From Strigamia acuminata (taxonomy: Eukaryota; Arthropoda; Chilopoda; Geophilomorpha; Linotaeniidae): a stretch of 64,000 nt of DNA. The stretch spans positions 2,359,087 to 2,423,086 of the forward strand of contig OX442314.1 of assembly GCA_949358305.1 (NCBI GenBank), written 5' to 3'. Position 1 is the first letter of the stretch, and each line of letters opens with the position of its first letter. Below the pieces are notes generated by a model. The model was not told where the DNA came from. It made no database searches and saw only the letters and a list, made by a program, of their open reading frames with translations. This document shows, piece after piece, positions 1,185 to 24,199 of this stretch. Position numbers and translations under genes: made by a program.

Positions 1185-1199
1185 GGGTCGCACGGCCAA

Positions 1200-2644: not shown

Positions 2645-2890
2645 GACCACGCCTCGACGAAGCCCGGGACCCGGTTTCCGACCGGGTCGTTTTTGGCCCA
2701 AGTCACGGCGCGTCGCGGCGCTTTCGGAGCACGCGACCCGATCCCCCCCTCCCCCCGTTCTCAAAAACCACGCCTCGACGAAGCCCGGGACCCGGTTTCC
2801 GACCGGGTCGTTTTTGGCCCAAGTCACGGCGCGTCGCGGCGCGTTCGGAGCACATGAACCGATCCCCCCTCCCTCCCGTCACAAAAACCA
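2645..2890. repeat. two-copy tandem repeat of about 121 bp
   Basis: The phrase ACCACGCCTCGACGAAGCCC followed by GGGACCCGGTTTCCGACCGG occurs twice, about 121 bp apart. Each copy continues into GGCCCAAGTCACGGCGCGTC and a C-rich tract. The same pieces also appear in the inverted arms, so the whole GC-rich region seems built from one repeat family. Confidence 0.75.
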
Positions 2891-3470
2891 CGTTTTAGCG
2901 AAACCCTTGACCGGTCACAAAACCCACCGAACACCGAAAAGCAACGAACAAAACGCGCTCGGTCGCACGAACTACTCGGCCAAAACAACATCCGCAAATT
3001 CCGCATCACAGTCGCGATCAACGAAACAACGTATAGGCCGCCGTAATGTTAAAAAGCGGGACCCTTTCGCCCCCGACAAAATCCGCACACATACCCCAAG
3101 GATATCCATCTACTACGCAAGAATTTAACAATTTCATTTTCAACAAGACAAAAGAAGCTAAAAACAAAGATCAATGTTGGCGTGCTCTAATGCACCCAGC
3201 ATATTCAAAATTTAATGTCAGTGATATTCTACAATATTCTACTACACTTAGTTACATAACTGATGCCTACTTCAAAACAGTAAATCTTTTTCATTTTTTC
3301 TCCATACCAAACTAGAAAAGATTAATCAAATTTAGAAAAAAAAATATTTGCAGCCTAAAATGCGCATTAACCTTACAATTGCAAATTATGAGAATGTGGA
3401 TTCGACCCCTGCACAAGTTTCCAGTCGTAAGTCAACAATAATTCCTGTATTCTTTATTTTTACAAGTTCC

Positions 3471-3685
3471 TGTAGTTTTTGTTCTAATATGTTGGAGGCA
3501 TAAAAATGGAGACGCTTGGCTTTTTGGTGAAATATTAACAGTGATGGTTTTAATCTAAAACAGATGTTTAAAAGTGCGCGGAGCACTAAATACAAAACAG
3601 GGCACTGATTGGTCAGTGCCAAATACAGGTGCACAGGTGGTAAAGACACCTGGCGGACAGGAATATAACATTCAATAAAACAACA
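3471..3685 (-). repeat. copia 3' LTR (215 bp)
   Basis: It starts TGTAGTTTTTGTTC and ends AATAAAACAACA on the plus strand. It matches 8030-8244 base for base as far as I can read. Confidence 0.93.
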
Positions 3686-3807
3686 CTTCCCCTGAATGGC
3701 AATATTCCTACATTTCAAAATTCAAAACATTTTTCTTAAGCAATTTAGACATTTAAACATTAAAGTATTCATTCACAAACAATTCAAAATATTAAAAACA
3801 ATATTTC

Positions 3808-6800
3808 TTAAACAATTTCCTTCAATCCAAATTGGGCGATCAATTCTTCGTGTTTTGGCTTAAAAAGCCCCTTGGTCAACACATCGGCGACCATCTTCTC
3901 ACTCTCCAGGAATTCTATGTCGATATCTCCCCGCTCACATGTTTCTCGAACAAAATGGTGGCGAATGTCGATGTGCTTGGTTCTGGAATGAAAAATTGGG
4001 TTTCGCACCAATTTGTGTGCCCCCTGATTATCGCTATAAATGAGGGTCGTTTCTTTCTTCTTGTTGATGTATTTAATTTCGTCTAGGAAGTTTCGCAAGT
4101 AGATTGCTTCTTTTGACGCGTCGGCCAACGCCATATATTCTGCTTCGGTCGACGAGGTTGCGACGGTCTTCTGCTTTCTTGCTTCCCAGCATATTGTCGC
4201 GTTCGCGAGTTTAAAGCAGTAGCCGGTGTACGAGCGACGGTCGTCCAAGTTTGCTCCCCAATCTGCATCCGTGTAGCCGACTAAGTCTTTTCCGGTCTTT
4301 TCGAATTTTAGCCCGAGATTCGATGAGTGCTTCAAATATCTTAGGACGCGTTTTGCTGCTGTCCAATGAGTTCCGGTGAAGCACGTATTATATTGACTTA
4401 ATGCGCTGACGGTGTAGGAAATATCGGGTCGAGTGCAAACGGCGAGGTACATGAGTGATCCGATTAAACTTTGGTACGGGAACTTCTCTGGATCCAGTAG
4501 CTCTTCGTCGGTCCCATCCTCCTTTTTCTTGTTTTTCTGCAATTTCTGATTTGCGTCGAGTGGAGTTGTGTTTTTCGAGCAGTCTTGCATTCCGAAACGA
4601 TTCAGTATGTCCTTAACGTATTTTTTCTGCGCCATCGTGATTGATTTCGTCTTTTCGTCCTGTTTAAACTCGATTCCCAAGCAGTAGTGAATTTGTCCTA
4701 AATCCTTCATTTTGAACTCGCTCTTCAGGTTCGATTTTAATTTCTCCAAGTTTCTTTTGCAGTTCGTTGCGATGATAAAATCATCCACGTAGATTGCGAC
4801 GAGCGTGATGACTTCTCCATTCATTTGGTAATACACGCATGGGTCTGCGTTTGTTGGCTTCAGTCCGTGCTTTTGCAACTTCTCGTCCAGTTTTTTGTAC
4901 CACTGGCGACCCGACTGCTTCAATCCGTATAACGCCTTTTTCATCCGGCAGACTTTTCCTTTCTTGATTTTTATTCCAGCAATAAATTCCAAATATTCGG
5001 GGAATTCCATAAAAATTTCCTCTTCGATTTCGCCGTTCAAATATGCCGTTATCGCGTCCATTTGGTGTACGGTCAATCCCAACTCGGCTGCGATTGCCAT
5101 CATCATTCGAATTGATCCCGGTCGTGCGACGGGCGCGTAGGTTTCAAAGTAATCGATGCCTGGCTGCTGTGCATATCCTTTGGCGACCAGTCTGGCCTTT
5201 CTGCGTTCGATTGACCCGTCTGCTTCAAATTTCGTGCGGAGGACCCATCTACATCCGATTACGTTTCTATTTTTTGGTCGGTCGCACTCCTCCCACGTTT
5301 CGTTTTCGATTAAAGCGTCGTACTCTTCCTTCATCGCTTTCATCCATTCTTGTGGGTCGTTTCCATTCAAAGCTTCGGCCGCTGTCGTTGGATCGTCGAG
5401 AATTGCTATCTGTGCAATTTCGTCCAAAACTTCATTAGTTGTTGTCGGATTCTTTCTGGTGTATTTCTTTCTGGGTGGGTCCCCATTTCGATTTGGGTAA
5501 GGTTTTGGCGTTCTCGAGGATCGTCGTGGAATTATTTGCGCGTTTTCATTCTGACGAGGTTCGGCTTCTTCGTGTTGCGTCTCTCTCTCGTCCTCATTAT
5601 CGGGCTCGTTCTCGCCTGCGCTCTCGACTTCGTCCTCGGAAATTTCGGTTCCATTCTCGATTTGATCTGTTCTGCAATCGGTGAGAATGTCATTAAAATT
5701 ATTGTTATTATCGTTTTCTTCACATTCTTCATTCGTTTCATTTTCCGATTTTTCGACAAATTTCACATCGCGACTTTTTATAATTTTGTTTTCGCTTTTT
5801 GACCACAAGCGATACGCCTTCGATCCGTCCCAATATCCGATGAGAATACATTCTTTTGACTTCGGTTCGAACTTCCCCTTGTTCGGTTTCTTGTCCAACG
5901 CGAAGACTCTGCTTCCAAAAACTCGAAAATAGTCGACATTCGGTTTTCTTCCGGTCCAGACTTGATGCGGGATTTCATTTTCCAAACTTCTAGTCGGGCA
6001 TTTATTTCGGATGTGGCATGCAGTGTTGATTGCTTCCGCCCAATATGAGTTAGGCAATTTTGCTTGCAGTAACATGCATCGTGCCATCTCGATCAAAGTT
6101 CTATTCATTCTTTCCGAGACGCCATTTTGTTCCGGGGTTCGTTCGACGCTGGTTTGGCGCTTTATGCCGTTTTCTTGTAAATATGCGTCGAATTTCTTAT
6201 TTACATATTCCTTCCCGTTGTCCGATCGTAAAACTTTTAGTGCGCAACCAGTTTCCCTCTCGCAAAACGTTTTAAATGACTTGAATGCCTCGAAAACTTC
6301 GCTTTTGTGCTTCAGAAAATACACCTTGCACCACCTCGATTTGTCGTCGGTGAAGGTCACGAAGTATCTTGATCCGTTCATGGACTTTGTTGGCATTGGT
6401 CCGCAAACGTCCGAGTGTACAAGTTCCAGCAGTTTTTCGCTTTTTGACGTGGAGTCAGGAAATTTCGTACTTGCGTGCTTCCCCTCGATGCAAGTTTCAC
6501 AAGTTGGCAGCTTGGCGTCCTTTTCCAAATTCATTCCGTCCGCCTTTTCGTTTAGTATTTTCAGACTTGACTCGTTCAGGTGCCCAAGTCTTTTGTGCCA
6601 TTCTTGTATTTTCGTACTTGCGGGTTTTGCAGGTTTTGATCCGGTTCCGACTTCGATTTCCGCTGCAGTCGCAGCATCCTCGGTCTCGTCGACGATGTAA
6701 TACAGTCCGTTCCTTTTTTCGGCGGTGAATACGATTTCTCCCTTCGGATTTATCACTTCTGCTGACTTATCATCGAAAATCACCTTGTGTCCCCGTTCTG

Positions 6801-7908
6801 TGATCTTCCCGACCGACATCAAATTCGTTCGTAGATCTCGCACCAAAAGAGTTTCCGCCAAATCCAGCTTCACATTTCCGTTCCCGGTGTTGACGACAAT
6901 TTTCGCGGTTCCTTTTCCGTCGATTTTTGTACTCGCTTTGCTGGCCAAATTCAGTTTTTGGTTTTTCAGGAATTCGATCGTCGAAAATGTTGAATCGTTC
7001 GAGCACATGTGGGAGCTGGCGCCGCTGTCCAAACACCAATTTTTCGGTCGTGACGTCTCGCTTATCAGCGCTGTCTCGATTTGCTCGCAGAAAAATAATT
7101 CGTACTTGGATTTCTCGGCTCTTGATGCGCTTTCCTTCTTGCTTTTACTTCGGCAATCGGCGATTTTGTGGCCAATTTTTCCGCAACCGTGACACTTGTA
7201 TTTGAAAACTGGCTTCTCGGTCGAATTCGAATTTTCGTCGCCGTATTTCTTTGGTTGCTTACGTTTTTGGAACGTTTTTCTGGCCATCATGGCGTCCGAC
7301 ACGTCTTCTTTTCCTTTTCCGCGGGCGATCGACTCGTCTTTGATTTTTCCCTCCAAAACTTCCAGCGATGGCAATTTATCTTGGGATTCTATTGCGCATC
7401 GAAAGTTGTCGTAGGAATTTGGCAAACTCAGTAGCAGTAGAATCGTTGTGAAATCTTCGGGCATTTTAAAATCCATGTCTAGCAATTTGTCTACTAGTTC
7501 GAAGAATTCTTTTAGGTGACTCTCCACGTTTTCTCCGTCCGCCATCTTGTGTGTCGCGAGTCGTTTTAACAACGTGATTTTTCTTGCCGGTCCTTTCGAT
7601 TGGTACACACTATGCAACTTCCTCCACAATTCATTTGCGGTGCTGCAATTTTTGGCCATTCGAAGTTCAGATTGCTTTATGTTTAGCAAAATGTCATTTT
7701 TGGCTGTTCGATCACTTTTCTCCCACGTCTCGATCTCCTTCATACGTTTCGCGTTGCCTTCAATGGTCTCTGGTCGTTTCGACGTACCTTCCGCGTGCAC
7801 GAGTAGGTCCCGTTGATCCAAAATTGCTTCCATCTGGATCTTCCATGTGTCGAAGTTTTCCTTTCCCAACGCCTCGATTCGAGCTGAATTTCCGCCGCCG
7901 TTCGCCAT
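3808..7908 (-). CDS. copia Gag-Pol polyprotein, 1366 aa, intact
   Basis: This is a single-frame polyprotein starting at ATG 7908, shortly after the primer site. Domains in order: a Gag region with a CCHC zinc knuckle (CHGCGKIGHKIADC, about residue 240); an aspartic protease (LDSGASSHMC, about 290); a pre-integrase zinc finger (WHKRLGHL ... CETCIEGKH); and an integrase core with D, D and E positions (HSDVCGPM, RSDNGKEY, and the E in TPEQNGVSERMNRT). The reverse transcriptase carries YVDDFIIAT, and the RNase H carries YTDADWG, SSTEAEYMAL and SDNQGAHKL. All catalytic signatures I can check are present, and the length suits a full copia polyprotein. The order protease-integrase-RT-RNase H is diagnostic of Ty1/copia rather than Ty3. 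Confidence 0.96.
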   Translation of the reverse strand: MANGGGNSARIEALGKENFDTWKIQMEAILDQRDLLVHAEGTSKRPETIEGNAKRMKEIETWEKSDRTAKNDILLNIKQSELRMAKNCSTANELWRKLHSVYQSKGPARKITLLKRLATHKMADGENVESHLKEFFELVDKLLDMDFKMPEDFTTILLLLSLPNSYDNFRCAIESQDKLPSLEVLEGKIKDESIARGKGKEDVSDAMMARKTFQKRKQPKKYGDENSNSTEKPVFKYKCHGCGKIGHKIADCRSKSKKESASRAEKSKYELFFCEQIETALISETSRPKNWCLDSGASSHMCSNDSTFSTIEFLKNQKLNLASKASTKIDGKGTAKIVVNTGNGNVKLDLAETLLVRDLRTNLMSVGKITERGHKVIFDDKSAEVINPKGEIVFTAEKRNGLYYIVDETEDAATAAEIEVGTGSKPAKPASTKIQEWHKRLGHLNESSLKILNEKADGMNLEKDAKLPTCETCIEGKHASTKFPDSTSKSEKLLELVHSDVCGPMPTKSMNGSRYFVTFTDDKSRWCKVYFLKHKSEVFEAFKSFKTFCERETGCALKVLRSDNGKEYVNKKFDAYLQENGIKRQTSVERTPEQNGVSERMNRTLIEMARCMLLQAKLPNSYWAEAINTACHIRNKCPTRSLENEIPHQVWTGRKPNVDYFRVFGSRVFALDKKPNKGKFEPKSKECILIGYWDGSKAYRLWSKSENKIIKSRDVKFVEKSENETNEECEENDNNNNFNDILTDCRTDQIENGTEISEDEVESAGENEPDNEDERETQHEEAEPRQNENAQIIPRRSSRTPKPYPNRNGDPPRKKYTRKNPTTTNEVLDEIAQIAILDDPTTAAEALNGNDPQEWMKAMKEEYDALIENETWEECDRPKNRNVIGCRWVLRTKFEADGSIERRKARLVAKGYAQQPGIDYFETYAPVARPGSIRMMMAIAAELGLTVHQMDAITAYLNGEIEEEIFMEFPEYLEFIAGIKIKKGKVCRMKKALYGLKQSGRQWYKKLDEKLQKHGLKPTNADPCVYYQMNGEVITLVAIYVDDFIIATNCKRNLEKLKSNLKSEFKMKDLGQIHYCLGIEFKQDEKTKSITMAQKKYVKDILNRFGMQDCSKNTTPLDANQKLQKNKKKEDGTDEELLDPEKFPYQSLIGSLMYLAVCTRPDISYTVSALSQYNTCFTGTHWTAAKRVLRYLKHSSNLGLKFEKTGKDLVGYTDADWGANLDDRRSYTGYCFKLANATICWEARKQKTVATSSTEAEYMALADASKEAIYLRNFLDEIKYINKKKETTLIYSDNQGAHKLVRNPIFHSRTKHIDIRHHFVRETCERGDIDIEFLESEKMVADVLTKGLFKPKHEELIAQFGLKEIV

Positions 7909-7999
7909 CGTTTCTTAGTTCTGTTTCTTGTGGAATGTTCGTGTTAAATTCGTTTTTAACTTCCTCGAATGTTCCGGTACAAAACTTGATGATTTTTAA

Positions 8000-8029
8000 G
8001 CGCAGTGGAAGCGTGCTGGGCCCATAACC
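8000..8029 (-). other. primer-binding site complementary to the 5' half of initiator tRNA-Met
   Basis: The plus-strand bases GCGCAGTGGAAGCGTGCTGG and GCCCATAACC directly abut the LTR. They read as the D-arm through anticodon-arm segment of eukaryotic initiator tRNA-Met, including CAT as anticodon. The element's sense strand is therefore complementary to an internal stretch of that tRNA, not to its CCA end. Drosophila copia is known to prime with a cleaved half of initiator tRNA-Met. Confidence 0.85.
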
Positions 8030-8244
8030 TGTAGTTTTTGTTCTAATATGTTGGAGGCATAAAAATGGAGACGCTTGGCTTTTTGGTGAAATATTAACAG
8101 TGATGGTTTTAATCTAAAACAGATGTTTAAAAGTGCGCGGAGCACTAAATACAAAACAGGGCACTGATTGGTCAGTGCCAAATACAGGTGCACAGGTGGT
8201 AAAGACACCTGGCGGACAGGAATATAACATTCAATAAAACAACA
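8030..8244 (-). repeat. copia 5' LTR (215 bp)
   Basis: This is the second LTR copy. Because the polyprotein is on the minus strand, it is the upstream LTR and should hold the promoter. It is followed by the target duplication GTTCC. Confidence 0.93.
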
Positions 8245-8605
8245 GTTCCTTTCTCCCTTAGCAATTTTGTTCCCATATGGGAATGCTGCTCATAAGATGG
8301 TCGTAAATCTTAATTTTCCCAAGGAATGTGAAAGGGTTCTCGTGAGTATTTAATTTCATCGACAATTCTCACAATTTATTTTGCATTTCTCACAACCACA
8401 AAGTTACACACCACATTTCTAAAAGAATGAGCTGTCAAAATTGTGAAATATTTCATAATAAAATTTAATAATCATTCTTGAAACCATTGCATTCAAATTC
8501 AAGGTGATAATAGATCCATCAGCAGTCGTTTATGATTCATACGCGAGTCCAAAAACTTCCTTAAGAAACCATGGCAAACATACCGTTGGAATTAGGGTGC
8601 AAGAA

Positions 8606-9180
8606 GTAAGGATCAAATTAATAATTAATTTAAACAGAAAAGTGAATTATTTTCTAGCCATTAATCGGAAGCATTTCTTCAATTAATCAGTTTTATTTAA
8701 GCACAACTGCTAATTATTTCCTAATCGGTAATAAGGGCTGTCAGTAATTTACGTGATGCTGTGTTTTGGTTGACTAGAATTAACATGAACACTTAACATC
8801 AAATCTCTGTAACAAGGTCGTAACAAATTCCTTCCCTCCCTCTAGGAAGGAAGGGAATTTGATAATAAGATAATAAATAGAACCGCCCTAAGACGCTACG
8901 TAATTTAGGGAAGGCCCCATAATAATACAAGTATTTGAAAATTGTATTTTAGTATCATTATATCAACACTAAGAAAAATCCATGTAATAATAATTTACCT
9001 GATTGCGTACGCCCATGTCTCGTCAAACAAATGAAATGCAAGTAAGCCTTTTAATTCGACTCAATAACAGAAATCAATGAAAAAATATTTATTTCTGTGC
9101 ATAAATCACACATCAACACATTTCAAAAATATTTTTTTATCTGACTGTTATTAATAAAAATTACAAGTTAACTTTAATAG
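8606..9180 (+). other. intronic interval containing one short channel exon
   Basis: Most of this interval is AT-rich intron. At 8953-9041, between acceptor TTGTATTTTAG and donor GTAAGC, an 89-bp open exon encodes INTKKNPC and a cysteine-rich tail ending KQMKC. It matches the exon at 11133-11242 in the second half, with the same entry phase 0 and exit phase 2. Confidence 0.7.
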
Positions 9181-9979
9181 AAATTGTCACATTAGACATC
9201 CATTTTATGAAGCAAAAAATCTCCCGGAATGCAATGACAAAGACACTTCGATTCAGTACAAACAAATAGAACAACTTCTCAGAACTAAAGATACAGCATC
9301 ACTGTGTAGATGTGGTAATGTATGTGATGAGACGAGGTTCAGCCAAACAATCGACAGAACACCTGGTGATGGAGATGAAATAGAAATTTATGTTGTCAAT
9401 TCTTTTGTTCAAACATTAGTCGAACGCTTTTCTTATGACATCATCAATTTGCTATGCGACATTGGAGGAAACATCGGCCTCTATTTCGGCATGTCTTGCT
9501 TGACACTGGTCGAAATATTCATTCACTTATGCAAAATATGCATCACCAAACCAGCAACAGCAAATTTCAAGTTGACAGATAAAATTGAAATGACACTTGA
9601 AAAAATGCAGAGTAGCCGAAAACCAACTTTCGTCAAAAAAGTGATCAAAATCACAACATCACTATTCTTTGGTTTGATATCAGTCTACTACATTTACCAT
9701 TTGATTGATTCTTATTTTCAATTTCAACTCTTGAAAACTGTTCAACTCGTTAGAGATGAAAAAATTCATTTTCCACTCATTATTGCATGTTCAGATAGTG
9801 CAATCATATCAGCTGCTAAAAAGGACTTAGCCCAAAAACTCAACACAACTGATTGTGATCATTTACAACTGTTGGATTTACTCCATCCACTATCTAAATT
9901 CGCAAATCAACCACTACAATTGTGGAATGTCTCGTCTCGTCTCGATTTATACGACAAATATCGGAGACTTTTACTCAAG
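9181..9979 (+). CDS. fusion exon of gene A: TM2 of subunit 1 joined to TM1 of subunit 2
   Basis: This is one open exon of 266 codons between acceptor AATAG and donor GTAAAA. In order it encodes the cysteine-rich end of an extracellular domain (LPEC, then CRCGNVCDETRF), a pre-TM2 segment, the TM2 core LLCDIGGNIGLYFGMSCLTL with the G-x-S motif GMS, and a basic, lysine-rich linker of about 50 residues. It continues with a second hydrophobic helix followed by YFQFQLLKTVQLV and the FPLIIAC strand that follows TM1 in this family. It ends in LHPLSKFANQPLQLWN-type extracellular sequence. A normal family member ends shortly after TM2. Here the frame runs straight into the next subunit. Gene B has the same arrangement. 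Confidence 0.9.
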
Positions 9980-10455
9980 GTAAAAAAATCAGAATATTTA
10001 AATATCAATTCAAACGTGTAAAAATTTAACAAACTTGTAGGATGGGGTAAGCGCAGAGTACATTGCATATTATTATGCCAACTTATCATTGAAACCAACT
10101 GTGTATGGAATGTGTACTGCATTTAATAAAGGTAACAAAAAAAAGTCTCTTTTAATTCTGACTAAAATATTTGTACACAGTTGACCGGCCGTTCGCTCGA
10201 AAGGGAAACTTTTTATCCATTATTGATATGCCCAGTCGTGGCCACTGTCCTATTAAACGAAAAGTGAGATAGAAGTTCATCATTCGCACTGTTAATTGCA
10301 ACAGTTACTAATTTGACTTTATGTATTCCAGCACTTCATTTTGCCAACAAATCAATTTTTTCATCTGAAATATCGTTTTGATGTACCCAGAAATTTAGCT
10401 GCTTTAGTCAACTTCGCCCCTCAAACGGTGAATTCAAAAAATGCTAAATCCACTA

Positions 10456-11132: not shown

Positions 11133-11615
11133 CTTGTTCGATTAAATACCCCGAGAAGTCCTTGCAGACCAAATGATGAAGTTTTAAGATGTGAAGAAAA
11201 CTGCTTTGAAAAGAAACTTGAGCAACAACCTTTCAATTGCAGGTAACTTGTAATTCATCCACTAATTACCGTGCATCCCATATTGCAATTTACAAATCAT
11301 ACACACATTGTTTGAGCATATATTTCTAACAATCGAGTGGAGCAAATTTATTGGTAACAGCAGGTGTATTCAAGGATTCCGTTTCTGTGATTATTGGTGT
11401 TTATAAACAACAAAAACAGCAAAAATGTTGTATAGCACCATTTATTAAAGTTTCTGAAGAATTTTTAAACTAAAAAATTTTTTTTAATAACTGGAAAGAA
11501 TCATGTGTCATGGCACACTGTATATTTCTATTAAATATTGTTGTATTACTAGACTTCCATCCATGGATAAGACTAAATTTCCCCTTTGCCTATCTCAAGA
11601 GACGGCTAAAACAAC

Positions 11616-12213
11616 TGTGACTGGTATGGTCTCGCCAATGTAACTAGGGGACTAATCACACTGGGTAGGGACGCATACATCACGTAATAATAACAGAGAT
11701 TCCCACAATATTGGTTGGTTGGCCTTTATTGTCGTTGTCTAGGGGTATGGGGAATCCCGTTACCCGTTGCAGGGGCGCCACGAAGGCGCGCCGCACCGGC
11801 AACCGACCCGTCACACACTGGGCAGAAGTCCAATGTGTGACGTGGTCGGTTCGACTTAACATTCATGTCGCGCTTACCTGCGACCCGCGTATCCGCTCAT
11901 GGAGGCTGCACTACGGACTCCGCCATAGCACTGAGGATCAACGTGGTGAATGGTGAGGAGGGTGGGGTTCAACCTGGGACACTTCTCGTCCCTCTCGATG
12001 ACTACTTCTCCTCTCTGGGAGCTGCTGCAGACACGTCCTTCTCAGGCCGTGTCCAACACTCAACTCTCCTCTCACACTCCACTCCCTCCTCACCACACCA
12101 CTCCACTCCCTCCTCCCCGGGCTAGGTCAATCACCCACAGAGGGGTTGACCTTTGGGGCCGTATGGTGGTGTGTGGCAGTGCCGCAGGTCACCCAGGTGG
12201 CCTGACGGTCACA
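11616..12213 (-). repeat. 3' LTR of the 12.6-kb element (598 bp)
   Basis: This is a TG...CA repeat with the short terminal inversion TGTGAC/GTCACA. It matches 23598-24195 throughout as far as I can compare by eye. Confidence 0.93.
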
Positions 12214-12228
12214 TCTCCCCCCCCCTCG
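12214..12228 (-). other. polypurine tract
   Basis: On the minus strand a run GAGGGGGGGGGAGA directly precedes the 3' LTR. This is the expected plus-strand primer of reverse transcription, and it fixes the element's orientation. Confidence 0.8.
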
Positions 12229-12941
12229 AAAAAGGTAGGTTCCAAGGGGCCACACACAACACCAACGGGGACACGCAAGTCGAGGCAAGCACAGCAATAG
12301 TGTCGGTCAAAGACCACACACTGTCGGGCTACCGGCGCTGACTTCCGGTGCCGGTTGTCCAAAGGATCACCGCACCGTCGGTCCACGATGTTCGAGCAAC
12401 GTTGGGCAACGGAAAACACCCAACCCTAGACTGGCCGAAAACAAAACAAACGATTGATGGTATTACAATGCAAATAATAATTCACCGAGCCTGAACGTAA
12501 CAAGCCCGGGAGCAAACCATAAAACAAAACAAAAGGAAAAACATTGACATAAAATAACAATAAACGAATTAAATTAAAAGGTAAAACAAGGATGGGAGAG
12601 GTTGGTCAAGCCTCTCAAGAATGTTTTAAAATAATTACGTTAAACAAACGAGGAAAAGAAAAAAAAAGAAAGAAAAAAAATAAATAACTATGTACATCAA
12701 CCGGGATCTGACCAAGACCCACGGTTGGGAGGTTCCAGGAACATTGGAAACCTCCGACGTCTTCTTTCGTCGGGCATCTGAGCGCGTGGCGCGGCGTCAC
12801 CGTCTCGTCACTCGCACTGGCTCGGCGTCCATGTCTTGGGACAGGCATCTCATGGAATCCTGTTTAGGGAAAAAATATTATCGGGACCAGAGGTCCGTCG
12901 TTTGTACAATTCCGGCGTCTAAGGACGACGGTCAGGGCTTT
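12229..12941. other. 3' untranslated part of the 12.6-kb element
   Basis: This lies between the polypurine tract and the stop of the 3' open frame. It includes an A-rich stretch near 12540-12690. No gene recognised. Confidence 0.5.
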
Positions 12942-15030
12942 TCACGGCTCCGGCGCATCCTCGGACGGCGGCTGCGGTCGAGAGGGGCCATGGGGCTCCT
13001 CTTCAGACGCAGCCGCGACCTCCGGTGCGATCTCTCGTGCGGGCCTTGCTGGGGCTGGAGAAGTTCTCGCTGCCTCCAGCACGGACCGTATGGATGGTGG
13101 TGGTGGCATCAGTCGCCTGTCCTCCGCTTCAGCTGCTGACGTTGATGGGGAAGGATGTGATCGAACCTTCTCCACCATTGGTGCAGCAGCCGTCGACACT
13201 GGCGAAAGTGGTGCGCAGCGCGCTCCCTTCTCGCCCTTCGTTGGGGTGGAACCGGACGCGGCCTTGCGGGACTTCTTCCCCTTTCCCTTCCTCTTCCGCT
13301 CGCGTTCCACCTCCTTCTTGCGCGCATCATACTCGGCCTCCACCGGGTCCCAAACTTCGGCGCTGAAGTCGTCCTTGTAGGCCTTCCGCCTATGCACCCG
13401 CTTGACGATTACCTCCTCGTAAGTAGGTGGGGGTGGCGGCGATAGTGTTGCCAGCTCCGGAGGCATCTCGATCGGGACGGGCATGTGGGATGCCGGTCTG
13501 AACACCCGCTGATGGCCATGGTTGTCCACCAGCTTAGGCAAACTCGCCAGCGTCTCCACGTAGCCGCGACAGACCGATGGATCGATGTCGGCGAAATCCG
13601 CCCCGACAGTCTCCTCCAGCGTCCATTCCTGAACCGCAAACGGTGACGGCAGATGGAGGTACCAGGCGTTCATGGCCGCCCCGACCGTCCACGCGACGAT
13701 CCGGACAGTCTCGAACCACCTGAGCCTCCTTGCTGCTGCTGACGCGACAGAGGGGATGCTGAGAATGATCCACATTCTCTGTCTTATCAGTGCCACCGCT
13801 CGGGTCATTCGGATGTCACTCCCCCTGGCATCCTCGAAGCGTAAATGGAGTTCTCTCCAACGTTTCGCTTCCGCAACCCAGAGCGCCAATGTTTGCTCGT
13901 GCGCGTGCTCAAGACGGGGAACACCCTGTATGAGCAGCTCAGCACAAACAACTGGGGCTCCGGGCGGCAATTCGGCGATCTCGAGCGGCGTCGGGCCCCC
14001 TACGGGCTCGAGGAACTCCGCTCCTTCCCGCTGCTCAGGGGGGTGTGGTACCTGGGCAGGTTCCTCACTCCCCGTCGCCGTTTCTACTTCCATGCCGACC
14101 GTCTCGGGGTCGGCGAGTCGCAGAAGCTGCGCCTCGAGAGACAAGCCCTCCAAGACGGACAACTCCAGCACGTCGTCCTCCGAAACAGCCAACTGGAACT
14201 CTTCCTCCACCGAGGCAGATGACTCGCACTGCTCCATTGGCAGCTCAGCGCAAGCGCCTTGCATCTCCTGGGGAACCGAGCACTCGTCTCGCGGCGTGGA
14301 CTGAGTCGACCATCCTGCCAGCAATGCGAGGCTACCCCAGGTACGGTGCAGAAGGCCGCCTGTTTCGTTGAACGAGTCCACCGGAAGGCCGAGAGCAAAC
14401 GACGCGCAAGCAATCGCTTCCTCCGAGCACGCTCCGATCACCGGTTCGTCGGAAACCACAGGAAGGCCCAAAGCGAGTGGCATAGCTGCAATAGCCTGCT
14501 CCTCGACTCCGGGTTCCCCCGCTGGCAGCTCGATGACGTTGTCGGGGCGATCCAGAGCAACGGACACGGCCTGTGCGGCCTGTTCGCTGACTCCAGGTTC
14601 CCCGACCGGTTGGGCTACTGCCGGTACGGCAGCAGCTTCGGCCTCTTCCAACGCCTTTGCTCGTATGGCGTCGGCACGCGCCTTTCTCGCCGCCTCCTTG
14701 AAGCGGCGACGCAGACGCTTCTCTTCGCACTCCACCTGGAACGGCGTGGCCTTGAGGTGAGTGGCACGCCAGTCCACCATCGCGGCCGCGTGCCGCACGG
14801 TCATCTCCTCCGTCCAAGTGGAGGGCGGTGGCTCCTGCCTTTGGCGCTTCGGGCTCGGCTGGGCTGGTGCCTCTGCAGACGCTGCTCGTCCAGCCTGAGC
14901 TTGGCGCCCTGGTTGCGGGATGCTCGACGGGGCAGGCTGCTGGTCCCGAATCCTCACCGCTTCAACCGTCAGCCAACGCGGGAGAAGCGCGAAACCGTTC
15001 CGCACCAACGTCTGCGTCCTGGACTCCTAG
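12942..15030 (-). CDS. 3' open frame of the 12.6-kb element, about 690 codons, function unknown
   Basis: This long GC-rich frame lies downstream of pol, where an env-like or accessory gene would be. I do not recognise the family. Its N-terminal part is Pro/Ala/Gln-rich, followed by an Arg/Lys/Glu-rich helix-like stretch. Then come three diverged repeats around EQA..A...ALGLPV, an acidic region, and a segment with W and R clusters (residues about 390-470). A PPxY-type motif lies within PPPPPTYEEV (about 535), followed by a basic RKKEVERERKRKGKGKKSRK patch and a Ser/Pro-rich tail. PPxY motifs bind WW domains and serve as late domains in retroviral Gag proteins. The first ATG in frame is only near 14804, although the frame is open back to a TAG at about 15030. 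Another short open frame continues in the same phase upstream of that TAG. Confidence 0.6.
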
Positions 15031-15259
15031 GAATCCACCTGCATCCACGTCGTTGTCGGGCGGGTGTGATGGCGATCTCCACCCTGCCTCGACAAATGTC
15101 GCACGAACCATCTTTGTCTGGGCACGGAGAAGTGGACTAGTCCGTGTCCCAAACAATTCCCGCAAGGGGACTCCCAGCCGCTGGCCGCAATCTGACACCG
15201 TTCGCCGAGGCAAACGGGACAGATGCGCCACTGGTCCGCTCCATCATCACCCGAATCTC
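15031..15259 (-). CDS. short zinc-finger-like frame directly upstream, separated by one TAG
   Basis: About 75 codons are in the same reading frame as the downstream 690-codon frame, separated from it by a single TAG. They encode a cysteine cluster CPVCLGERC and, about 14 residues later, CGNCLGHG. This is a possible zinc-binding module of a kind I cannot assign. There is no early ATG, but a plausible splice acceptor (AAATCAG/GA) lies at its 5' edge. The phase of that acceptor fits the donor at 16843, which ends a small frame starting at ATG 16946. A spliced message with TAG readthrough is one model. An eroded frame is the simpler alternative. Confidence 0.4.
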
Positions 15260-17766
15260 CTGATTTCTAAAGAATAAACAGGAAATAAATCAATTAATAA
15301 AACCGTCAAAACCACTGAAAAACGCATGGGATTGAAAAAGAACAATTGAAAAATAGCGTAGAGTAAAGAATGAGAATTGAGGAAATAATGGGGACAAAAC
15401 TTGGCACGCGGGGGCGACCAACTCGGCCTCGCAGCGCCAAGTGCCTGATTATGCGCAGAGCGCGTGACGTAACCGGACGTTACACAATCGTTGAGGGTAC
15501 CGAGCTGGCGGAAGCCTAGCCTCGGCGCTCCGACGACGTGAGCGAAAGTCCTTCCTGGGTTCAAGAAAATTGAACCGGGATTATGATGGAATCCTGACCG
15601 AAGCGTAGAGCTCGGTTAACGGTACGATGGTTGCTCGAGTTCCAAACACGACAAGGCAAGGGATGGTGACTCCAACGTAAATCGCAACCAACATGGCGGA
15701 CCGTTCTGCACAACGGCCCGGCATGCCGGTAGTCCTTGGCGTCGGCACCAAAACCCAGTCAAGTCGCGAGCACACGAGCAGAACATCGATGATGACAAAG
15801 AGGATTACATTAATGAAAGCACGCGAGCGGGTGAAAAAGTAAAAAGACACCTTTTCAACCCGGAGCGAGCGAAAAGAGAAAAGAAATAATAAAACTCCAA
15901 TTTAAACGTGAACAAAAAAAACAAAACCAAACCGAACGAGAGCGAAAAACTCGAGTTCGGGGCAAAATAAGCAAAGAAGGGGTCGAAGAATAAAGAAAAG
16001 AACGAAAAGCTCCAAACAGATGCGGACTTTGATTTCTTCGAGTCGCGCCGCAGTGACGAGTGAGTCGGAAAGCGAACTTCCCGGCTCCTTTTACCGCGGC
16101 GTCGACCCCTCGCCACATGCTATTGTTCCCCTAGACTGACAGTCTCTGATCAAGCCGCCGATGACTCAAGTGACCAGCTGCGGGTCTTTGACCTCAATTA
16201 GGGACAATAGAAATGGGGATGCACAGATTCCGAGGGATTAGGCGCAGGCCAAAAAAAAATTAACCTCTGCCACTCTACTCGTGAATCTGTCGCCGATACC
16301 CACCTGTTTCACAGAAAAAACCGGGGACACGGCGAATGGAGGCAAAAAACAAAAAAAAAGATAAGAGCAAAAAAAAAATTAAGCGCAAAAAAAAAAAATT
16401 AGAAATGATTAATTAAAAAATCTAAAAAAAAACTTTTACAGGAACATTGGAAGAAAACGAAGCAAGAAAATGAAACGGAAGTGATAGAAAATCAGGGAAA
16501 CAATGGAATGGTAAATCGAAACCGATGCAAAAGAAATTGTTACGAAGTGTTTTGTGAGAGGAAACAGCAAAAAATTTTCGGGTTTCCTCACACAAAAGTT
16601 GCTTTGAAATACTCGCCGAACACATGTTGATCGTAATCAACCGTGTTTCAGTGAAGATATTTGGATGCGGCGAGTCGAAAAACCATTCAATTCGCCAGCA
16701 TCTCTAGCGGTGAGCGGCGGCCAAAGGCTGCCAGCCCGCGCGCTAGTTTATACAAGATCGGGGTCCGGGTGTAAGAAAACAATCGGTCACGGGCGTAGAT
16801 CGAGGGAAGAGCACAGCAAATGATGTAAAAAATTGCAGCTTACCTTCATCGATCAGAAAACATACGAAAAAACGCCTTGAAAGAAAAACGCAGACAAAAA
16901 CAGTAAACTGATGTTGTCGGCTCGCTCTCACGAAAACAAGTGACACACGGGGTGATGTCCAGAAACAAGAACCTTTGTCTAAACATAGAACAATCCCCGA
17001 CCCGTGACCTGTGATTGGGTCTCACGACACCCTCACCCCTCTAATTGGTGAAATAAACAATCCCCTAGTTGAAAGACGATCCTTTGCAACAGATGTGGAG
17101 AAAAACACCATAAAAGTTCATAAAAAAAAATTGTTTCACAACCACAGCATTTTCTCGAATTTTTTAGTGAAAAAAAATATCCACAATTTTCGGGCAGTGA
17201 AAGAAAACACGCTCAAAAATTGCGGCTGTGCTGTGTAAGACCGTTGCCATGGCTACGATCCGCCGTGATATTCGTGACGTCATAAGAGCGTCGCGAGCTC
17301 ATCGGTGAAGATTGCACGTGACTGCTGAAACTGGCCTCGGGAAGTCGGTCATTAAACCAACTTTTCCGACCAATTTTAGCAATTTTTTCTACCTATTTTG
17401 GCAGCATCACATGCTTGTGACTGGTACCGATCGATCGGCGGCCACTGCGACTAGCCACGGACCTCCCGATCGACGCACCGATTTCGCCGAGCAACAGGTG
17501 GCGTGTTTGAACATGGGTGAGTGTGATTTAAAAAAAAAACATACAACCATTACAAATTAGTCACCGTTCCAGGGCAATTTATTACTCCAAAATTATGTTC
17601 GCCGGCGTGACAGTAACGAGAGCATCGTCGTGTCTACGCCTGATAAACGTTTCATTAGTTTTGAGTCCGACCGGAACAAGGAAAACTACTTTCCTGGCCA
17701 GAAAAACATTCGTCGCAACCTTTTCACCATGTCGGCCGCGTTATCCTGCGCATAACGAGGATGCAG
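15260..17766 (-). other. non-pol interval of the 12.6-kb element
   Basis: About 2.5 kb separates pol from the 3' open frame. At its upstream edge, shortly after the pol stop, a short piece in another frame ends RLRRMFFWPGK. This resembles the end of the integrase zinc region before a stop, so the integrase core appears to be missing. The rest contains A-rich tracts, the possible leader exon at 16844-16946 and no other credible gene. Confidence 0.5.
16844..16946 (-). CDS. possible leader exon of the 3' gene in the 12.6-kb element
   Basis: From ATG 16946, 34 codons rich in Phe, Val and Cys run to a canonical donor (GAAG/GTAAGC) in phase 1. That phase is compatible with the acceptor at 15260. 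The hydrophobic stretch could act as a signal or membrane segment if translated. The assignment rests only on the splice sites and phase. Confidence 0.3.
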
Positions 17767-20595
17767 TCAAATGACGTCAAGGCAGCAATCAAGCAGTGGT
17801 GCAGGCATCAAGATTTTTACATCCGAGCCGTGCTCCGCTCTGCTTAGCGGCGTGTCGGGTGAGAACGGGGTATTTAAGCACAATTCTCCGCACCCACCGA
17901 ACACAAAATCTGGTTTGTATTGCGCCATGGATGGTGGGAGTTGGGACAAAAGATGGTCGTCTCTTTGCCCTTCATCTAACCATTTCATGACAGCGCTACA
18001 GTCCGGGTCATCTCGCTGGACCTGTCTAACCTCGTCGTAAGACATGATCGTACCAGCGAGACTCTCCGTAACGAGCGTGTGGGCCAGCATGATCGCAGCT
18101 TCTTCCTCGGGCGTAGCCGCCGATGTCGTTTCCACGTCATCTAGGCCAACCTTTGAAAGAGCGACCGCGATCCTGTCGTCCGCACGCTTGTTAAACTTAA
18201 TCGAAAATCTCACCTGTTGCAGTTGCATCGCCCATCGCACCAGGCGACCTGACGCGCTCGTCGATGACAAGAGCCAGAGCAACGCCATACAACCTGTTTC
18301 GATGACGAACTTCGAGTACGCGATGAATGGTCGAAAGGAAGCGACTGCCTGCAGAACCGCCAGACATTCCAACTCTGACAGGCTGAACGCTGTCTCGGCG
18401 CCTTGCAGCGCACGACTCGCGTAGGCAACGGGCCTTTTGACTCCTTGATGATCCATCTGTGTGAGGACTGCTCCAAGCCCAACTCTACTTGCGGCAGCCT
18501 GGATGACAAAAGTTCTGTTGAACTCAGGCATAGGAAGCACGCTCCCACGCGCAAGATGATCCTTGAAGAGCTGGAACACACCCTGACACTCATTAGACCA
18601 ATTCCACGCAGCGCCGTCATTAAGCAGCGCTTCCAGTGGATTCGAGGGATGTTCGAGACCCTCGATCGCCGGTATGTCTCCGCCGAACATGCCAAGGAAA
18701 CGTCGCAGCTGAGCAACATTCCTCGGTTGCGGATAATCCACAATCGCCTGAACGCGGCGTTCGTTCGGTCGGAAACCGTACCGAGTTATCGAATAGCCCA
18801 GAAAATCCCAAGAGGTCGATAAAATACACGAACCAGACGGGCTGGCGGTCAAACAATGCTTGTTCAACCTGCCTAACACATCTGACAAGTGCGTTAAATG
18901 TTCTTCGAATGTTTTACTGAACACGACGATCGAGTCCAGGTAGGGCAATGCCCACTTAAACTTCGCATCGCCGAGTACTTTGTCCATCAGTCGTTGAAAC
19001 GCCATAGGAGTATTCAACAAACCGTAAGGTAACTTCACAAATTGAAAAGTACCAAGGGGTGTATAAAATGCTGTTTTAGGTCTGTCGAGCGGCGCAATCC
19101 GTAATTGGAAACACCCCATCGCCAGATCTAGCGTCGAGAAAAATATACTCCCTTCCAGACAAGCCAAAATCATGGGGATCGACGGGACCTGATACCCATC
19201 CCTCTCCGTGATAGCATTCAGCCGTCTGAAATCTATACAAGCATCAAAGGTTCCATCAGGTAACATACTTATGACTGGCTGGCTCCTATAAACACTGACG
19301 CTTTCTTCTATTTCGCCCCTTTTCAGCGCATTACGCACTAAACGGCGGAGAGCTCTCGCCTCCGCTGGGCATGTGTGTTTGACTTTGCACGAGAAAGGCG
19401 GCGTATCACCCGTGGGAATTAACAACTCTACCGTTGGATGACAACCTCCCGTCTCGCTGAAGGTGTGTCCAAACTCGTCGAGAACACGAGTCAGTCTCAC
19501 TTTCCGCATGTCTTCTATTTTACAGGCTTCCAATAGATCTAATTGATTGGATGACATCGACAGTGCGGCCGCATCAACGCCGTGTTCCAGCGTGACCCTT
19601 GCCCACTTGTCAACATCCGCGCCTTTTTCGTCCAGCTGATCAGGCTGAGGGGCGAAAGGAAACGTTACTCCCGGATTGTCGATATGATACCAATCATTCC
19701 GGGCGATGCGAATTACAATGCCATTCTCGCCGAGCCAACTGCACCCGAGAAGGATGAAGTTAGACGCGGAAGGTAGCACTGCAAACCGTAACCAATCAGC
19801 TCCCGTCTGCCAGCTGACATGCAAGTTCACCGTCCCGACGGGACTGGTGACTCTACCGCCCGTCATAACCCTAACAAAATCATCGCAGGGTTCAATCGAG
19901 GCTGTTAGTCCGTATTCCTCGGCCGCGGCACTACTCATATACTGCCCAGAAGCACCAGAATCCATGAGTGCCACCGCGCTGCGGTCGGAAAAATGAATGT
20001 CAACGAACGGGAGAGGCAGATCCTTCCCCAGTCCGGCCACGTTCACAGTATCCCAGACTGCACCAACGGCTAAGCCGACAAAACAAACTTGACCGGGCGA
20101 CGAGCCGTCTGTTACGACGCCTTCGTCTGCTTCAGTCGTTCTTAGAGCTTGGAAGGGCGAGATCCGGTCGTAGAGTTCGGCGGGGTCAACCACGTCGTTC
20201 CCCGCGATCAAATCTGGCGCATCTTCCTGCTCACCCTCGACATCCGAGTCGTCCTGAGCAACGGCTTGAGCAACAGCCGCTCTCCTGGACAATTCAAAGA
20301 TGCGTTTTGAAAAATCGTTCCGGAGTGAAACGGTGGATCTTGCCCAAGCTTCCACCATTTCGGTAACTTCCTTCTGAGCGCGAGCAGCTGCTTTACGCGC
20401 CCGCTTTGCTGCAAAGTTGGACCAACGCGCGCTGCTACGGGCAGCGGCGGCGCCAAGCACTGCCTGCCGCCTGTCGCGTTGATATTCTTTAATGATTCTC
20501 ACGACGTCATCCTGCGTCTTCATCTCGCATGGATAAACATTGCACAGAATGGCCAGTTCTCTGGCCCAAGCCGGGTCAAGTTCCGTGCTTGCCAT
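17767..20595 (-). CDS. Ty3-like protease/RT/RNase H frame with lost catalytic residues
   Basis: Translation likely starts at ATG 20595; the frame is open a little further up but without an ATG. A charged N-terminal region (residues 1-180) is followed by a retropepsin motif LMDSGASGQYMS. RT blocks follow (INDFRRLNAIT-like CIDFRRLNAIT, LDLAMGCFQLRIA, KLPYGLLNTPMAFQRLM), then an RNase H-like part. At the RT active site the usual YxDD reads YLDS. In RNase H the TDAS position reads AAAS, the TDH position TGC, and the ADALS position AVALS. Several separate catalytic acidic residues are therefore replaced, yet the frame stays open for more than 940 codons. No Gag zinc knuckle and no integrase core are present. 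Either this copy lineage is defective and mobilised in trans, or the protein is kept for another role. Confidence 0.8.
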   Translation of the reverse strand: MASTELDPAWARELAILCNVYPCEMKTQDDVVRIIKEYQRDRRQAVLGAAAARSSARWSNFAAKRARKAAARAQKEVTEMVEAWARSTVSLRNDFSKRIFELSRRAAVAQAVAQDDSDVEGEQEDAPDLIAGNDVVDPAELYDRISPFQALRTTEADEGVVTDGSSPGQVCFVGLAVGAVWDTVNVAGLGKDLPLPFVDIHFSDRSAVALMDSGASGQYMSSAAAEEYGLTASIEPCDDFVRVMTGGRVTSPVGTVNLHVSWQTGADWLRFAVLPSASNFILLGCSWLGENGIVIRIARNDWYHIDNPGVTFPFAPQPDQLDEKGADVDKWARVTLEHGVDAAALSMSSNQLDLLEACKIEDMRKVRLTRVLDEFGHTFSETGGCHPTVELLIPTGDTPPFSCKVKHTCPAEARALRRLVRNALKRGEIEESVSVYRSQPVISMLPDGTFDACIDFRRLNAITERDGYQVPSIPMILACLEGSIFFSTLDLAMGCFQLRIAPLDRPKTAFYTPLGTFQFVKLPYGLLNTPMAFQRLMDKVLGDAKFKWALPYLDSIVVFSKTFEEHLTHLSDVLGRLNKHCLTASPSGSCILSTSWDFLGYSITRYGFRPNERRVQAIVDYPQPRNVAQLRRFLGMFGGDIPAIEGLEHPSNPLEALLNDGAAWNWSNECQGVFQLFKDHLARGSVLPMPEFNRTFVIQAAASRVGLGAVLTQMDHQGVKRPVAYASRALQGAETAFSLSELECLAVLQAVASFRPFIAYSKFVIETGCMALLWLLSSTSASGRLVRWAMQLQQVRFSIKFNKRADDRIAVALSKVGLDDVETTSAATPEEEAAIMLAHTLVTESLAGTIMSYDEVRQVQRDDPDCSAVMKWLDEGQRDDHLLSQLPPSMAQYKPDFVFGGCGELCLNTPFSPDTPLSRAEHGSDVKILMPAPLLDCCLDVI

Positions 20596-21159
20596 TCTTT
20601 TTCCGATTCTTGTCAGTGGTATCTCGTGAGTGTGATCAAGACCACGCACAAGCCAGGAGTGGGGAATTATTCGAAAACTTCTCCACTTCCTATAAACAAA
20701 CTAACGTCGGGGTCACCTTAACCAATCACCGCCGCCTACAACTAGGTCAACCGTAATTTGCAAAAAGGCTCCAGTTCCCCTTCAGATGGAATGTCCAACC
20801 ACCGGCCATGTGTTGGACCTTCGGGCGCCTTTACGGTGCTTCAAAGATCTACAAGGCTATTTTTAGTAATTTGGCAATGAAGCATCTGGCGAAGACAAAA
20901 GGTATGCACCAGGGGTGTCATCCTGTTCTTTCATCAGAGTTCATGCTTTTAGGGTTAAAAGTCGATTAAGCAGAAGAACTGCGAGGTCAATGGTTCAATA
21001 CCCTGACTGCGTCATGCAAATCTGCTACTGATTTAAAATGTACTATAAAGAATAAAACATAATAAATTATTACAAGATAGTTTTAATTATCGAACAACAA
21101 TAAAAACAACAACAAATTTTGGCTCTTCTCTGCGCCCCAAAATATAAAATTAGCGGTTA

Positions 21160-21350
21160 AACTTTGGTATTTTTAATCCACGCCCCAAAATAAAAAATTA
21201 GCGAACACTTTTTGGCATTTTTAATCCACGCCCCAAAAAATAAAAAATTAGCGAACACCTTTCTGGTATTTATCCACGCCCCAGAAGATAGAAACTGGCG
21301 AACACCTTTCCGGCATTTATCCACGCCCCAGAAGATAGAAATGGGCGACT
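21160..21350. repeat. tandem repeat of about 50 bp in the leader
   Basis: About four imperfect copies carry the phrases ATCCACGCCCCA and GGCGAACACCTTTC or TTAGCGAACA. Confidence 0.75.
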
Positions 21351-23564: not shown

Positions 23565-23597
23565 TTCCAAGTTCAAATCTCGGACAGGGCCCTCAAT
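23565..23597 (-). other. tRNA-like primer-binding region
   Basis: On the plus strand CCAAGTTCAAATCTCGGACA continues into GGGCCCTCAAT next to the LTR. It looks like the T-arm and acceptor end of a tRNA (GTTCAAATC loop). The complementary minus strand is thus a plausible primer site with a longer-than-usual tRNA match. The terminal CCA complement is imperfect. Confidence 0.5.
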
Positions 23598-24195
23598 TGT
23601 GACTGGTATGGTCTCGCCAATGTAACTAGGGGACTAATCACACTGGGTAGGGACGCATACATCACGTAATAATAACAGAGATTCCCACAATATTGGTTGG
23701 TTGGCCTTTATTGTCGTTGTCTAGGGGTATGGGGAATCCCGTTACCCGTTGCAGGGGCGCCACGAAGGCGCGCCGCACCGGCAACCGACCCGTCACACAC
23801 TGGGCAGAAGTCCAATGTGTGACGTGGTCGGTTCGACTTAACATTCATGTCGCGCTTACCTGCGACCCGCGTATCCGCTCATGGAGGCTGCACTACGGAC
23901 TCCGCCATAGCACTGAGGATCAACGTGGTGAATGGTGAGGAGGGTGGGGTTCAACCTGGGACACTTCTCGTCCCTCTCGATGACTACTTCTCCTCTCTGG
24001 GAGCTGCTGCAGACACGTCCTTCTCAGGCCGTGTCCAACACTCAACTCTCCTCTCACACTCCACTCCCTCCTCACCACACCACTCCACTCCCTCCTCCCC
24101 GGGCTAGGTCAATCACCCACAGAGGGGTTGACCTTTGGGGCCGTATGGTGGTGTGTGGCAGTGCCGCAGGTCACCCAGGTGGCCTGACGGTCACA
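23598..24195 (-). repeat. 5' LTR of the 12.6-kb element (598 bp)
   Basis: Second copy of the LTR. It is followed on the plus strand by the CAAC duplication, after which the interrupted channel exon resumes. Confidence 0.93.
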
Positions 24196-24199
24196 CAAC

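What the first reader, a model, noticed from the sequence alone, without database searches (positions are those of the whole stretch)
9181..9979. A covalently tandem DEG/ENaC channel: TM2 of one subunit runs into TM1 of the next within one exon
The sequence shows a single open exon coding for the end of an extracellular domain, TM2 with the GMS selectivity-type motif, a short basic linker, and then TM1 and the start of a second extracellular domain. DEG/ENaC subunits are normally two-helix proteins that assemble as trimers. A built-in dimer poses a stoichiometry puzzle: two fused chains give four subunits, so one half may be silent, or a single-subunit partner may complete the trimer. I know of no described natural concatemer in this superfamily, but I could not search.
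Basis: partly seen in the sequence, partly recalled or inferred. Interest (0 to 1): 0.93.

Follow-up and report, generated by a model that had tools for sequence, protein, structure and literature searches.

The report
Naturally fused double sodium-channel subunit genes
Two neighbouring genes in this probable centipede genome each join two sodium-channel subunits head to tail in one reading frame, an arrangement otherwise familiar from laboratory constructs; it poses a puzzle because such channels normally assemble from three separate subunits.

Summary
Exon 9181-9979 (+) runs without a stop from the end of one DEG/ENaC ectodomain through TM2 (GMS), a basic linker, TM1 and the start of a second ectodomain, inside a ten-exon open frame. 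The flagged gene looks recently broken: an LTR retrotransposon with identical LTRs lies in its last exon, and its start and first TM1 were not found in the window. The stronger evidence is a paralogue on the minus strand (40745-29272), intact from ATG to stop: 11 exons, 760 aa, two ASC domains fused in the same way. Seven Strigamia maritima (centipede) proteins are relatives; five carry the junction. Both halves repeat one intron-phase series (0,1,0,0,2), so a six-exon gene was probably duplicated in tandem and fused last exon to first. First and second domains form separate groups spanning both species. Ten literature searches of one open-access library listed no natural DEG/ENaC concatemer. 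Assembly is untested, both structure predictions failed, and there is no RNA evidence. New variant of a known kind.

The parts
9181..9979 (+). Gene 1 exon 6 (the finding): end of ectodomain 1, TM2, linker, TM1 of domain 2, start of ectodomain 2
9431..9520 (+). Gene 1 domain-1 TM2 region (SYDIINLLCDIGGNIGLYFGMSCLTLVEIF; GMS at 9488-9496)
9530..9655 (+). Gene 1 basic linker between TM2 of domain 1 and TM1 of domain 2 (edges chosen by eye)
9656..9727 (+). Gene 1 TM1 of domain 2 (approximate; below the hydropathy threshold in this copy), followed by FPLIIAC at 9770-9790
3101..3279 (+). Gene 1 exon 1, 3' part only (upstream part with ATG and TM1 not found in the window; left edge uncertain)
3354..3426 (+). 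Gene 1 exon 2
8262..8341 (+). Gene 1 exon 3
8504..8605 (+). Gene 1 exon 4
8953..9041 (+). Gene 1 exon 5
10041..10131 (+). Gene 1 exon 7
10181..10263 (+). Gene 1 exon 8
10332..10427 (+). Gene 1 exon 9
11133..11242 (+). Gene 1 exon 10
11553..11616 (+). Gene 1 exon 11, first fragment (acceptor AG at 11551-11552), cut by the LTR element
24198..24479 (+). Gene 1 exon 11, second fragment with TM2 of domain 2 (GFS) and stop TGA
11617..24194 (-). LTR retrotransposon inside gene 1 exon 11 (596 of 596 LTR bases identical, 11617-12212 and 23599-24194; flanking duplication ACAACT; its reverse transcriptase ORF lies on the minus strand)
3471..8244 (-). Ty1/copia element in gene 1 intron 2 (215 of 215 LTR bases identical; flanking duplication GTTCC), 17 bases upstream of exon 3
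36656..37400 (-). Gene 2 exon 6: same TM2-linker-TM1 fusion; GMS at 37126-37118, linker 37084-36965
40266..40745 (-). Gene 2 exon 1 with ATG and TM1 of domain 1 (about 40592-40536)
40143..40215 (-). Gene 2 exon 2
39996..40081 (-). Gene 2 exon 3
38941..39045 (-). Gene 2 exon 4
38083..38171 (-). Gene 2 exon 5
36066..36120 (-). Gene 2 exon 7
35909..36006 (-). Gene 2 exon 8
35740..35835 (-). Gene 2 exon 9
35571..35683 (-). Gene 2 exon 10
29272..29614 (-). Gene 2 exon 11: end of ectodomain 2, TM2 of domain 2 (GLS), stop TAG

Best explanation
The exon belongs to a family of natural tandem DEG/ENaC subunits, so far seen in Strigamia maritima and the window species, which is probably also a centipede. 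One chain crosses the membrane four times: TM1, ectodomain 1, TM2, a cytoplasmic basic linker of about 40 residues, TM1', ectodomain 2, TM2', and then it ends. It arose when a six-exon single-domain gene was duplicated in tandem and the last exon of the first copy was fused to the first exon of the second, before the two species split. Shown: the continuous frame in two genes, the ASC match of both halves, the conservation of the junction, and the repeated intron phases. Inferred: it is translated as one chain, with this topology, and works as a cation channel whose pore is carried mainly by domain 1, because domain-1 TM2 is almost invariant while domain-2 TM2 has diverged and lacks the two acidic residues of domain 1. 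My most likely assembly, about 0.4, is a trimer in which the two domains of one chain fill neighbouring places and the third place is filled by domain 1 of another chain or by a single-domain partner. A pore of three domain 1s with domain 2 as a tethered companion is nearly as likely, about 0.3.
For: Two genes in the window have the fused exon. Gene 2 runs from ATG to stop in 11 exons with GT-AG introns. Each half of gene 2 alone matches PF00858 (3.7e-16 and 3.2e-13). The phases after exons 1-5 and after exons 6-10 are both 0,1,0,0,2, in gene 2 and gene 1. Of 7 Strigamia proteins retrieved, 5 run from domain 1 into domain 2. Linkers are 38-43 residues with 9-13 K/R against 2-5 D/E in the 5 measured of 6 that contain one. 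Domain-1 and domain-2 profiles are homologous (97.6%, E 3.2e-12) and form separate groups spanning both species (97/95 and 100/100). Genes 1 and 2 differ with dN 0.42-0.45 and dS 1.13-1.24 over 432 codons of five exons. Domain-1 TM2 is 27-29 of 30 identical in three pairs, domain-2 TM2 15 of 28 in each. An engineered head-to-tail ASIC1a dimer gives functional channels (PMC4529235, passages).
Against: There is no RNA or protein evidence. Gene models were made by hand. Gene 1 is interrupted in its last exon and its first TM1 was not found in the window. None of the 7 Strigamia entries covers a whole two-domain protein. Gene 2 has one AATAAA in the linker. A methionine occupies the same linker column in 3 of 6 sequences at one place, and each of six linkers has a methionine somewhere. 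Structure predictions were too poor to use (pLDDT 45.3 and 38.0). No HG dipeptide precedes TM1 in either half of gene 2, and channel activity is not shown. The second half of gene 1 alone does not reach the Pfam cut-off.
Confidence: 0.82

Rival explanations
1. Two overlapping transcription units: each half is made as a separate single-domain subunit through a poly(A) site and an internal promoter or start inside the fused exon, so that no fused protein exists.
For: One AATAAA lies in the linker of gene 2, and each of six linkers holds a methionine somewhere.
Against: No stop codon separates the halves in either window gene or in the five Strigamia proteins. Gene 1 has no AATAAA or ATTAAA in the exon. 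No methionine column is shared by more than 3 of 6 linkers. The linker keeps its length and charge.
Confidence: 0.07
2. Decaying remnants: the fused genes are dying copies and the fusion has no function.
For: Gene 1 has an LTR element in its last exon and an incomplete exon 1. A third fragment at 41290-41364 is decayed.
Against: Gene 2 is intact over 760 codons. The dN/dS ratio between genes 1 and 2 is about 0.34-0.40. Domain-1 TM2 is nearly invariant across 7 sequences.
Confidence: 0.1
3. Domain-1 homotrimer with companions: three chains meet through domain 1 to make one pore, and the three second domains sit beside it as tethered auxiliary or regulatory domains, or form a second, poorly conducting pore.
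For: Domain-1 TM2 is almost invariant, while domain-2 TM2 has N or Q where domain 1 has the D of DIGG, Q where domain 1 has E, and diverges more freely.
Against: Domain 2 keeps GxS in 3 of 3 sequences and its cysteine-rich ectodomain, as expected if it faces other subunits or a pore.
Confidence: 0.3
4. Two chains make a four-domain channel, a natural tetramer.
For: Two fused pairs give four domains without a remainder. One study argued for ASIC1a tetramers at the cell surface and found a two-subunit fusion functional (PMC4529235, passages).
Against: PDPNaC1, the nearest solved relative, is stated to be a homotrimer (PMC12714832, abstract), and its entry and those of Broad-range thermal receptor 1 hold three chains each.
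Confidence: 0.1

Closest known systems
PDPNaC1 (Scolopendra subspinipes mutilans, PDB 9jf7)
   Same: Best sequence match among solved structures, over thumb, palm and TM2 of domain 1 (4.5e-12)
   Different: Single chain of 421 aa encoded by nine exons, assembling as a homotrimer (PMC12714832, abstract and sections 7 and 13)
Broad-range thermal receptor 1, BRTNaC1 (PDB 8ymw, 8ymr)
   Same: Second match over the same region (2.7e-11); a second stretch around TM1 of domain 1 aligns in place but is not significant alone (8.7 bits)
   Different: Single-domain chain of 431 residues in the solved entries
Strigamia maritima T1IVW1, T1IZ33, T1JC02, T1JF29, T1JFH9, T1J6S2, T1IWL3
   Same: Members of the same family; the first five carry the domain-1 to domain-2 junction
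   Different: Uncharacterised partial gene models; none covers the whole two-domain chain
Engineered ASIC concatemers
   Same: Subunits joined C-terminus to N-terminus through a cytoplasmic linker; functional in oocytes (dimer, PMC4529235; trimers, PMC10329638, and PMC8871370; passages only)
   Different: Made in the laboratory from identical or chosen subunits; here the two halves have diverged, and domain 2 ends right after TM2
K2P (tandem-pore) potassium channels
   Same: Same evolutionary idea: two two-helix subunits fused into one chain (recalled, not tested)
   Different: K2P chains pair to complete a four-part pore; a pair does not divide into the three-part DEG/ENaC pore (recalled)

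Membership tests
DEG/ENaC (ASC, PF00858) | Match to the family profile | tested here: met
   Gene 2 domain 1 3.7e-16 and domain 2 3.2e-13; P0003 6.6e-21, best stretch its domain 2 over profile 27-451 of 455. Gene 1 domain 2 alone is below the cut-off (17.7 against 23.6 bits)
DEG/ENaC (ASC, PF00858) | GxS selectivity motif in TM2 | tested here: met
   GMS in domain 1 of 7 of 7 sequences; GLS, GLS and GFS in domain 2 of gene 2, P0003 and gene 1. The role of GxS is recalled
DEG/ENaC (ASC, PF00858) | Cysteine-rich ectodomain | tested here: met
   By eye: thumb cysteines in both halves. The cysteine after FP and the one in YGxC are present in domain 2 and both absent in domain 1; that these two pair in ASIC1 is recalled
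DEG/ENaC (ASC, PF00858) | HG motif before TM1 | tested here: not met
   No HG in residues 1-60 or 376-445 of gene 2; P0006 and P0007 read AEQSEIP(A/E)F there. That HG is typical and serves gating is recalled. This weakens ordinary gating, not homology
DEG/ENaC (ASC, PF00858) | Two transmembrane helices per chain | tested here: not met
   Four by homology, two per domain. Hydropathy alone passes three of four in gene 2 (misses TM2 of domain 1), finds TM2 of domain 1 but not TM1 of domain 2 in gene 1, both in P0002 and P0004, and only TM1 of domain 2 in P0005. The doubled count is the novelty
DEG/ENaC (ASC, PF00858) | Trimeric assembly | not testable with these tools
   Both single-chain models were too poor; no multimer prediction was available
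DEG/ENaC (ASC, PF00858) | Cation current, amiloride block | not testable with these tools
   Needs electrophysiology

The most novel reading that the evidence does not exclude
Centipedes have natural DEG/ENaC concatemers that do not assemble as plain trimers. Two-domain chains build a fixed-order or higher-order complex, such as a four-domain channel or a twin-pore assembly of three chains, with domain 1 as the conducting half and domain 2 as a built-in modulatory half.
Probability: 0.2. Interest if true: 0.92.

Novelty: new variant of a known kind. Interest (0 to 1): 0.77.

Why it matters
DEG/ENaC channels are two-helix, three-subunit channels, and fused subunits are used in the laboratory to fix their stoichiometry. 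A natural, conserved two-domain version gives an evolutionary test of how a two-part chain fits a three-part pore, and of whether the subunit count can change. It also gives a family with a built-in split between a strictly conserved pore half and a diverging half.

Tried and rejected
Own-genome search for single-domain relatives and further copies was asked 11 times and never answered. Structure prediction of Strigamia P0003 (12 aligned rows, pLDDT 45.3, pTM 0.30) and of gene 1 exon 6 (7 rows, pLDDT 38.0, pTM 0.23) gave models too poor to use, probably for want of related sequences.

A three-domain gene, which would make a whole trimer in one chain, was considered and rejected for gene 2: it starts at an ATG with TM1 of domain 1 and ends after TM2 of domain 2. 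For gene 1 it cannot be excluded, since its 5' end was not found. The third protein search, made with domain 1, found no relative outside Strigamia at E up to 1 (7 of 4407 candidates); the search reaches only proteins sharing exact words, so other lineages are not excluded. The profile of domain 2 (4 rows) found only weak solved-structure matches (stathmin-like domain 0.0034, taken as chance; ASIC5 0.015 and 0.019 around TM1).

Literature: ten searches were answered; three of them returned no paper at all because their terms were narrow, and the others showed titles and starts of abstracts of at most 20 papers each. None listed a natural tandem DEG/ENaC. The library lacks most subscription papers, and domain-database lists of two-ASC architectures could not be checked, so a prior record is possible. 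The Strigamia genome paper and a paper on six further myriapod genomes hold none of six channel terms in the main text. Passages found in PMC9822975, PMC7738191 and PMC3866589 did not bear on the fusion.

Full report
What is there. The stretch 9181-9979 (+) is one exon. Its frame has no stop from 9158 to 10018. It encodes the end of a DEG/ENaC ectodomain, TM2 with GMS, a basic linker, TM1 and the start of a second ectodomain with FPLIIAC. With nine further exons between 3101 and 11242 it forms one open frame, every intron between them GT-AG and every phase compatible; the left edge of the first of these exons is uncertain. By base shuffling the linker alone would stay open 4.5% of the time, the whole exon 0 times in 20,000.

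The flagged copy is damaged. The last exon of gene 1 is split into 11553-11616 and 24198-24479. Between them lies an LTR retrotransposon of about 12.6 kb with identical LTRs (596 of 596 bases) and the flanking duplication ACAACT; an ORF on its minus strand carries reverse transcriptase domains. Reading into the element gives eight more residues and then a stop, so domain 2 would lose its last helix. A copia element, LTRs identical over 215 bases and flanking duplication GTTCC, sits in intron 2. The upstream part of exon 1, with the start codon and TM1, was not found in the window. Identical LTRs suggest that both insertions are recent.

The intact copy. On the minus strand, gene 2 runs from an ATG at 40745 to a TAG at 29272 in 11 exons and encodes 760 residues. 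Each half alone matches PF00858 above the curated cut-off: 59.6 and 50.0 bits against 23.6. Exon 6 (37400-36656) has the same fusion. A gypsy element lies in intron 10 (LTRs 30067-30370 and 35200-35503; domains) and leaves the coding exons alone.

Relatives. Three searches of 5.8 billion proteins returned relatives only from the centipede Strigamia maritima: 3 (E up to 0.01), 6 (E up to 1e-5; only the 7996 candidates sharing most words were scored), 7 (E up to 1), seven different proteins in all. Five of the seven (P0002, P0003, P0004, P0005, P0008) run from domain-1 TM2 into domain 2; four of these contain the whole linker and TM1, while the gene model of P0003 lacks the linker and the start of TM1. 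P0006 and P0007 are N-terminal pieces with TM1 of domain 1. That the window comes from a centipede is an inference from these matches.

Origin. The intron phases after exons 1 to 5 are 0, 1, 0, 0, 2, and after exons 6 to 10 again 0, 1, 0, 0, 2, in gene 2 and in gene 1. The simplest reading is a six-exon single-domain gene duplicated in tandem, with last exon and first exon fused. Domain-1 and domain-2 profiles align with 97.6% probability. In a tree of nine partial sequences over 149 columns (four first domains, three second domains, two single-domain centipede channels; the other first domains at hand were not put in), first domains form one group (97/95) and second domains another (100/100), each with members from both species, so the duplication is older than their split. 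The tree is unrooted and does not show by itself that the two domains are sisters.

Signs of function. Genes 1 and 2 differ by dN 0.42-0.45 and dS 1.13-1.24 over 432 aligned codons from five exons (5, 6, 9, 10 and the second part of 11; the others were not used), a ratio of about 0.34-0.40. Domain-1 TM2 is 27 to 29 of 30 identical in the three pairs compared, domain-2 TM2 15 of 28 in each. Domain 1 keeps the first acid of DIGG and the E of LVEIF in 7 of 7 sequences; domain 2 has N or Q and Q in those places in 3 of 3 sequences but keeps GxS. Linkers measure 38 to 43 residues with 9 to 13 basic and 2 to 5 acidic residues in the five measured, in keeping with a cytoplasmic position. Neither half of gene 2 has HG before TM1. 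Domain 1 lacks both the cysteine after FP and the one in YGxC, and domain 2 has both.

How it may work. Shown: one continuous coding frame for two channel domains in gene 2, the same junction in gene 1 and in five Strigamia proteins. Inferred: one chain with both ectodomains outside and the linker inside; a cation channel; domain 1 as the main pore half. Fusing subunits tail to head is compatible with channel function: an engineered two-subunit ASIC1a fusion gave currents in oocytes, although its authors argued for tetramers (PMC4529235, passages), and three-subunit fusions also work (PMC10329638 and PMC8871370, passages). The nearest solved relative, PDPNaC1, is a homotrimer of 421-residue chains from a nine-exon gene (PMC12714832, abstract and sections 7 and 13). 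I therefore favour a trimer that takes its third place from another chain or a partner, with a pore of three domain 1s close behind and a tetramer as the boldest option.

Against. There is no transcript or protein evidence. Both structure predictions were too poor to use. Gene 2 has one AATAAA in the linker. A methionine shares a linker column in 3 of 6 sequences at one place, 2 of 6 at another, and 1 of 6 elsewhere, so an internal start is not conserved but not excluded in single genes. Own-genome searches did not complete, so single-domain partners could not be sought. Hydropathy alone does not flag every helix (see the membership table).

Novelty. Ten answered literature searches, three of them empty, listed no natural tandem DEG/ENaC. 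That is a limited library, and architecture lists of domain databases were out of reach. I rate it a new variant of a known kind.

Noticed in passing
window 41290-41364 (+): Decayed fragment resembling the start of exon 1 of this family (QLRRRKLQNIVGTVI, E 0.006, a stop inside the match), pointing away from gene 2: perhaps the remnant of a third copy.
   Followed up: partly
window 10455-10821, with copies at 61389-61741 and 26026-26336: Short repeat family (69-74% alike) with inverted ends (CTCTGGCTCACTATAAGGTTG seen at both ends of the first copy), probably a MITE; one copy sits in gene 1 intron 9.
   Followed up: partly
window 30067-35503 (-): Gypsy element with LTRs 99.7% identical in intron 10 of gene 2, with two long ORFs (protease; reverse transcriptase, RNase H and integrase domains).
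   Followed up: partly
window 56476-58488 (-): 670-codon open stretch with TOG/HEAT repeat matches (XMAP215_CLASP_TOG 2.7e-11).
   Followed up: partly
window 1-3060: GC-rich array of imperfect palindromic repeats (variants of ACGGGCCGTTAACGGCCCGT) next to the truncated first exon of gene 1.
   Followed up: no
window 59334-60117 and 50023-51307: Tandem repeat arrays; self-matches in the first are offset mostly in steps of 60 bases.
   Followed up: no
Strigamia maritima P0006 and P0007; gene 2 exon 1: A conserved N-terminal motif AEQSEIP(A/E)F(I/L)KS(L/V)K stands before TM1, where DEG/ENaC subunits usually have HG (recalled).
   Followed up: partly
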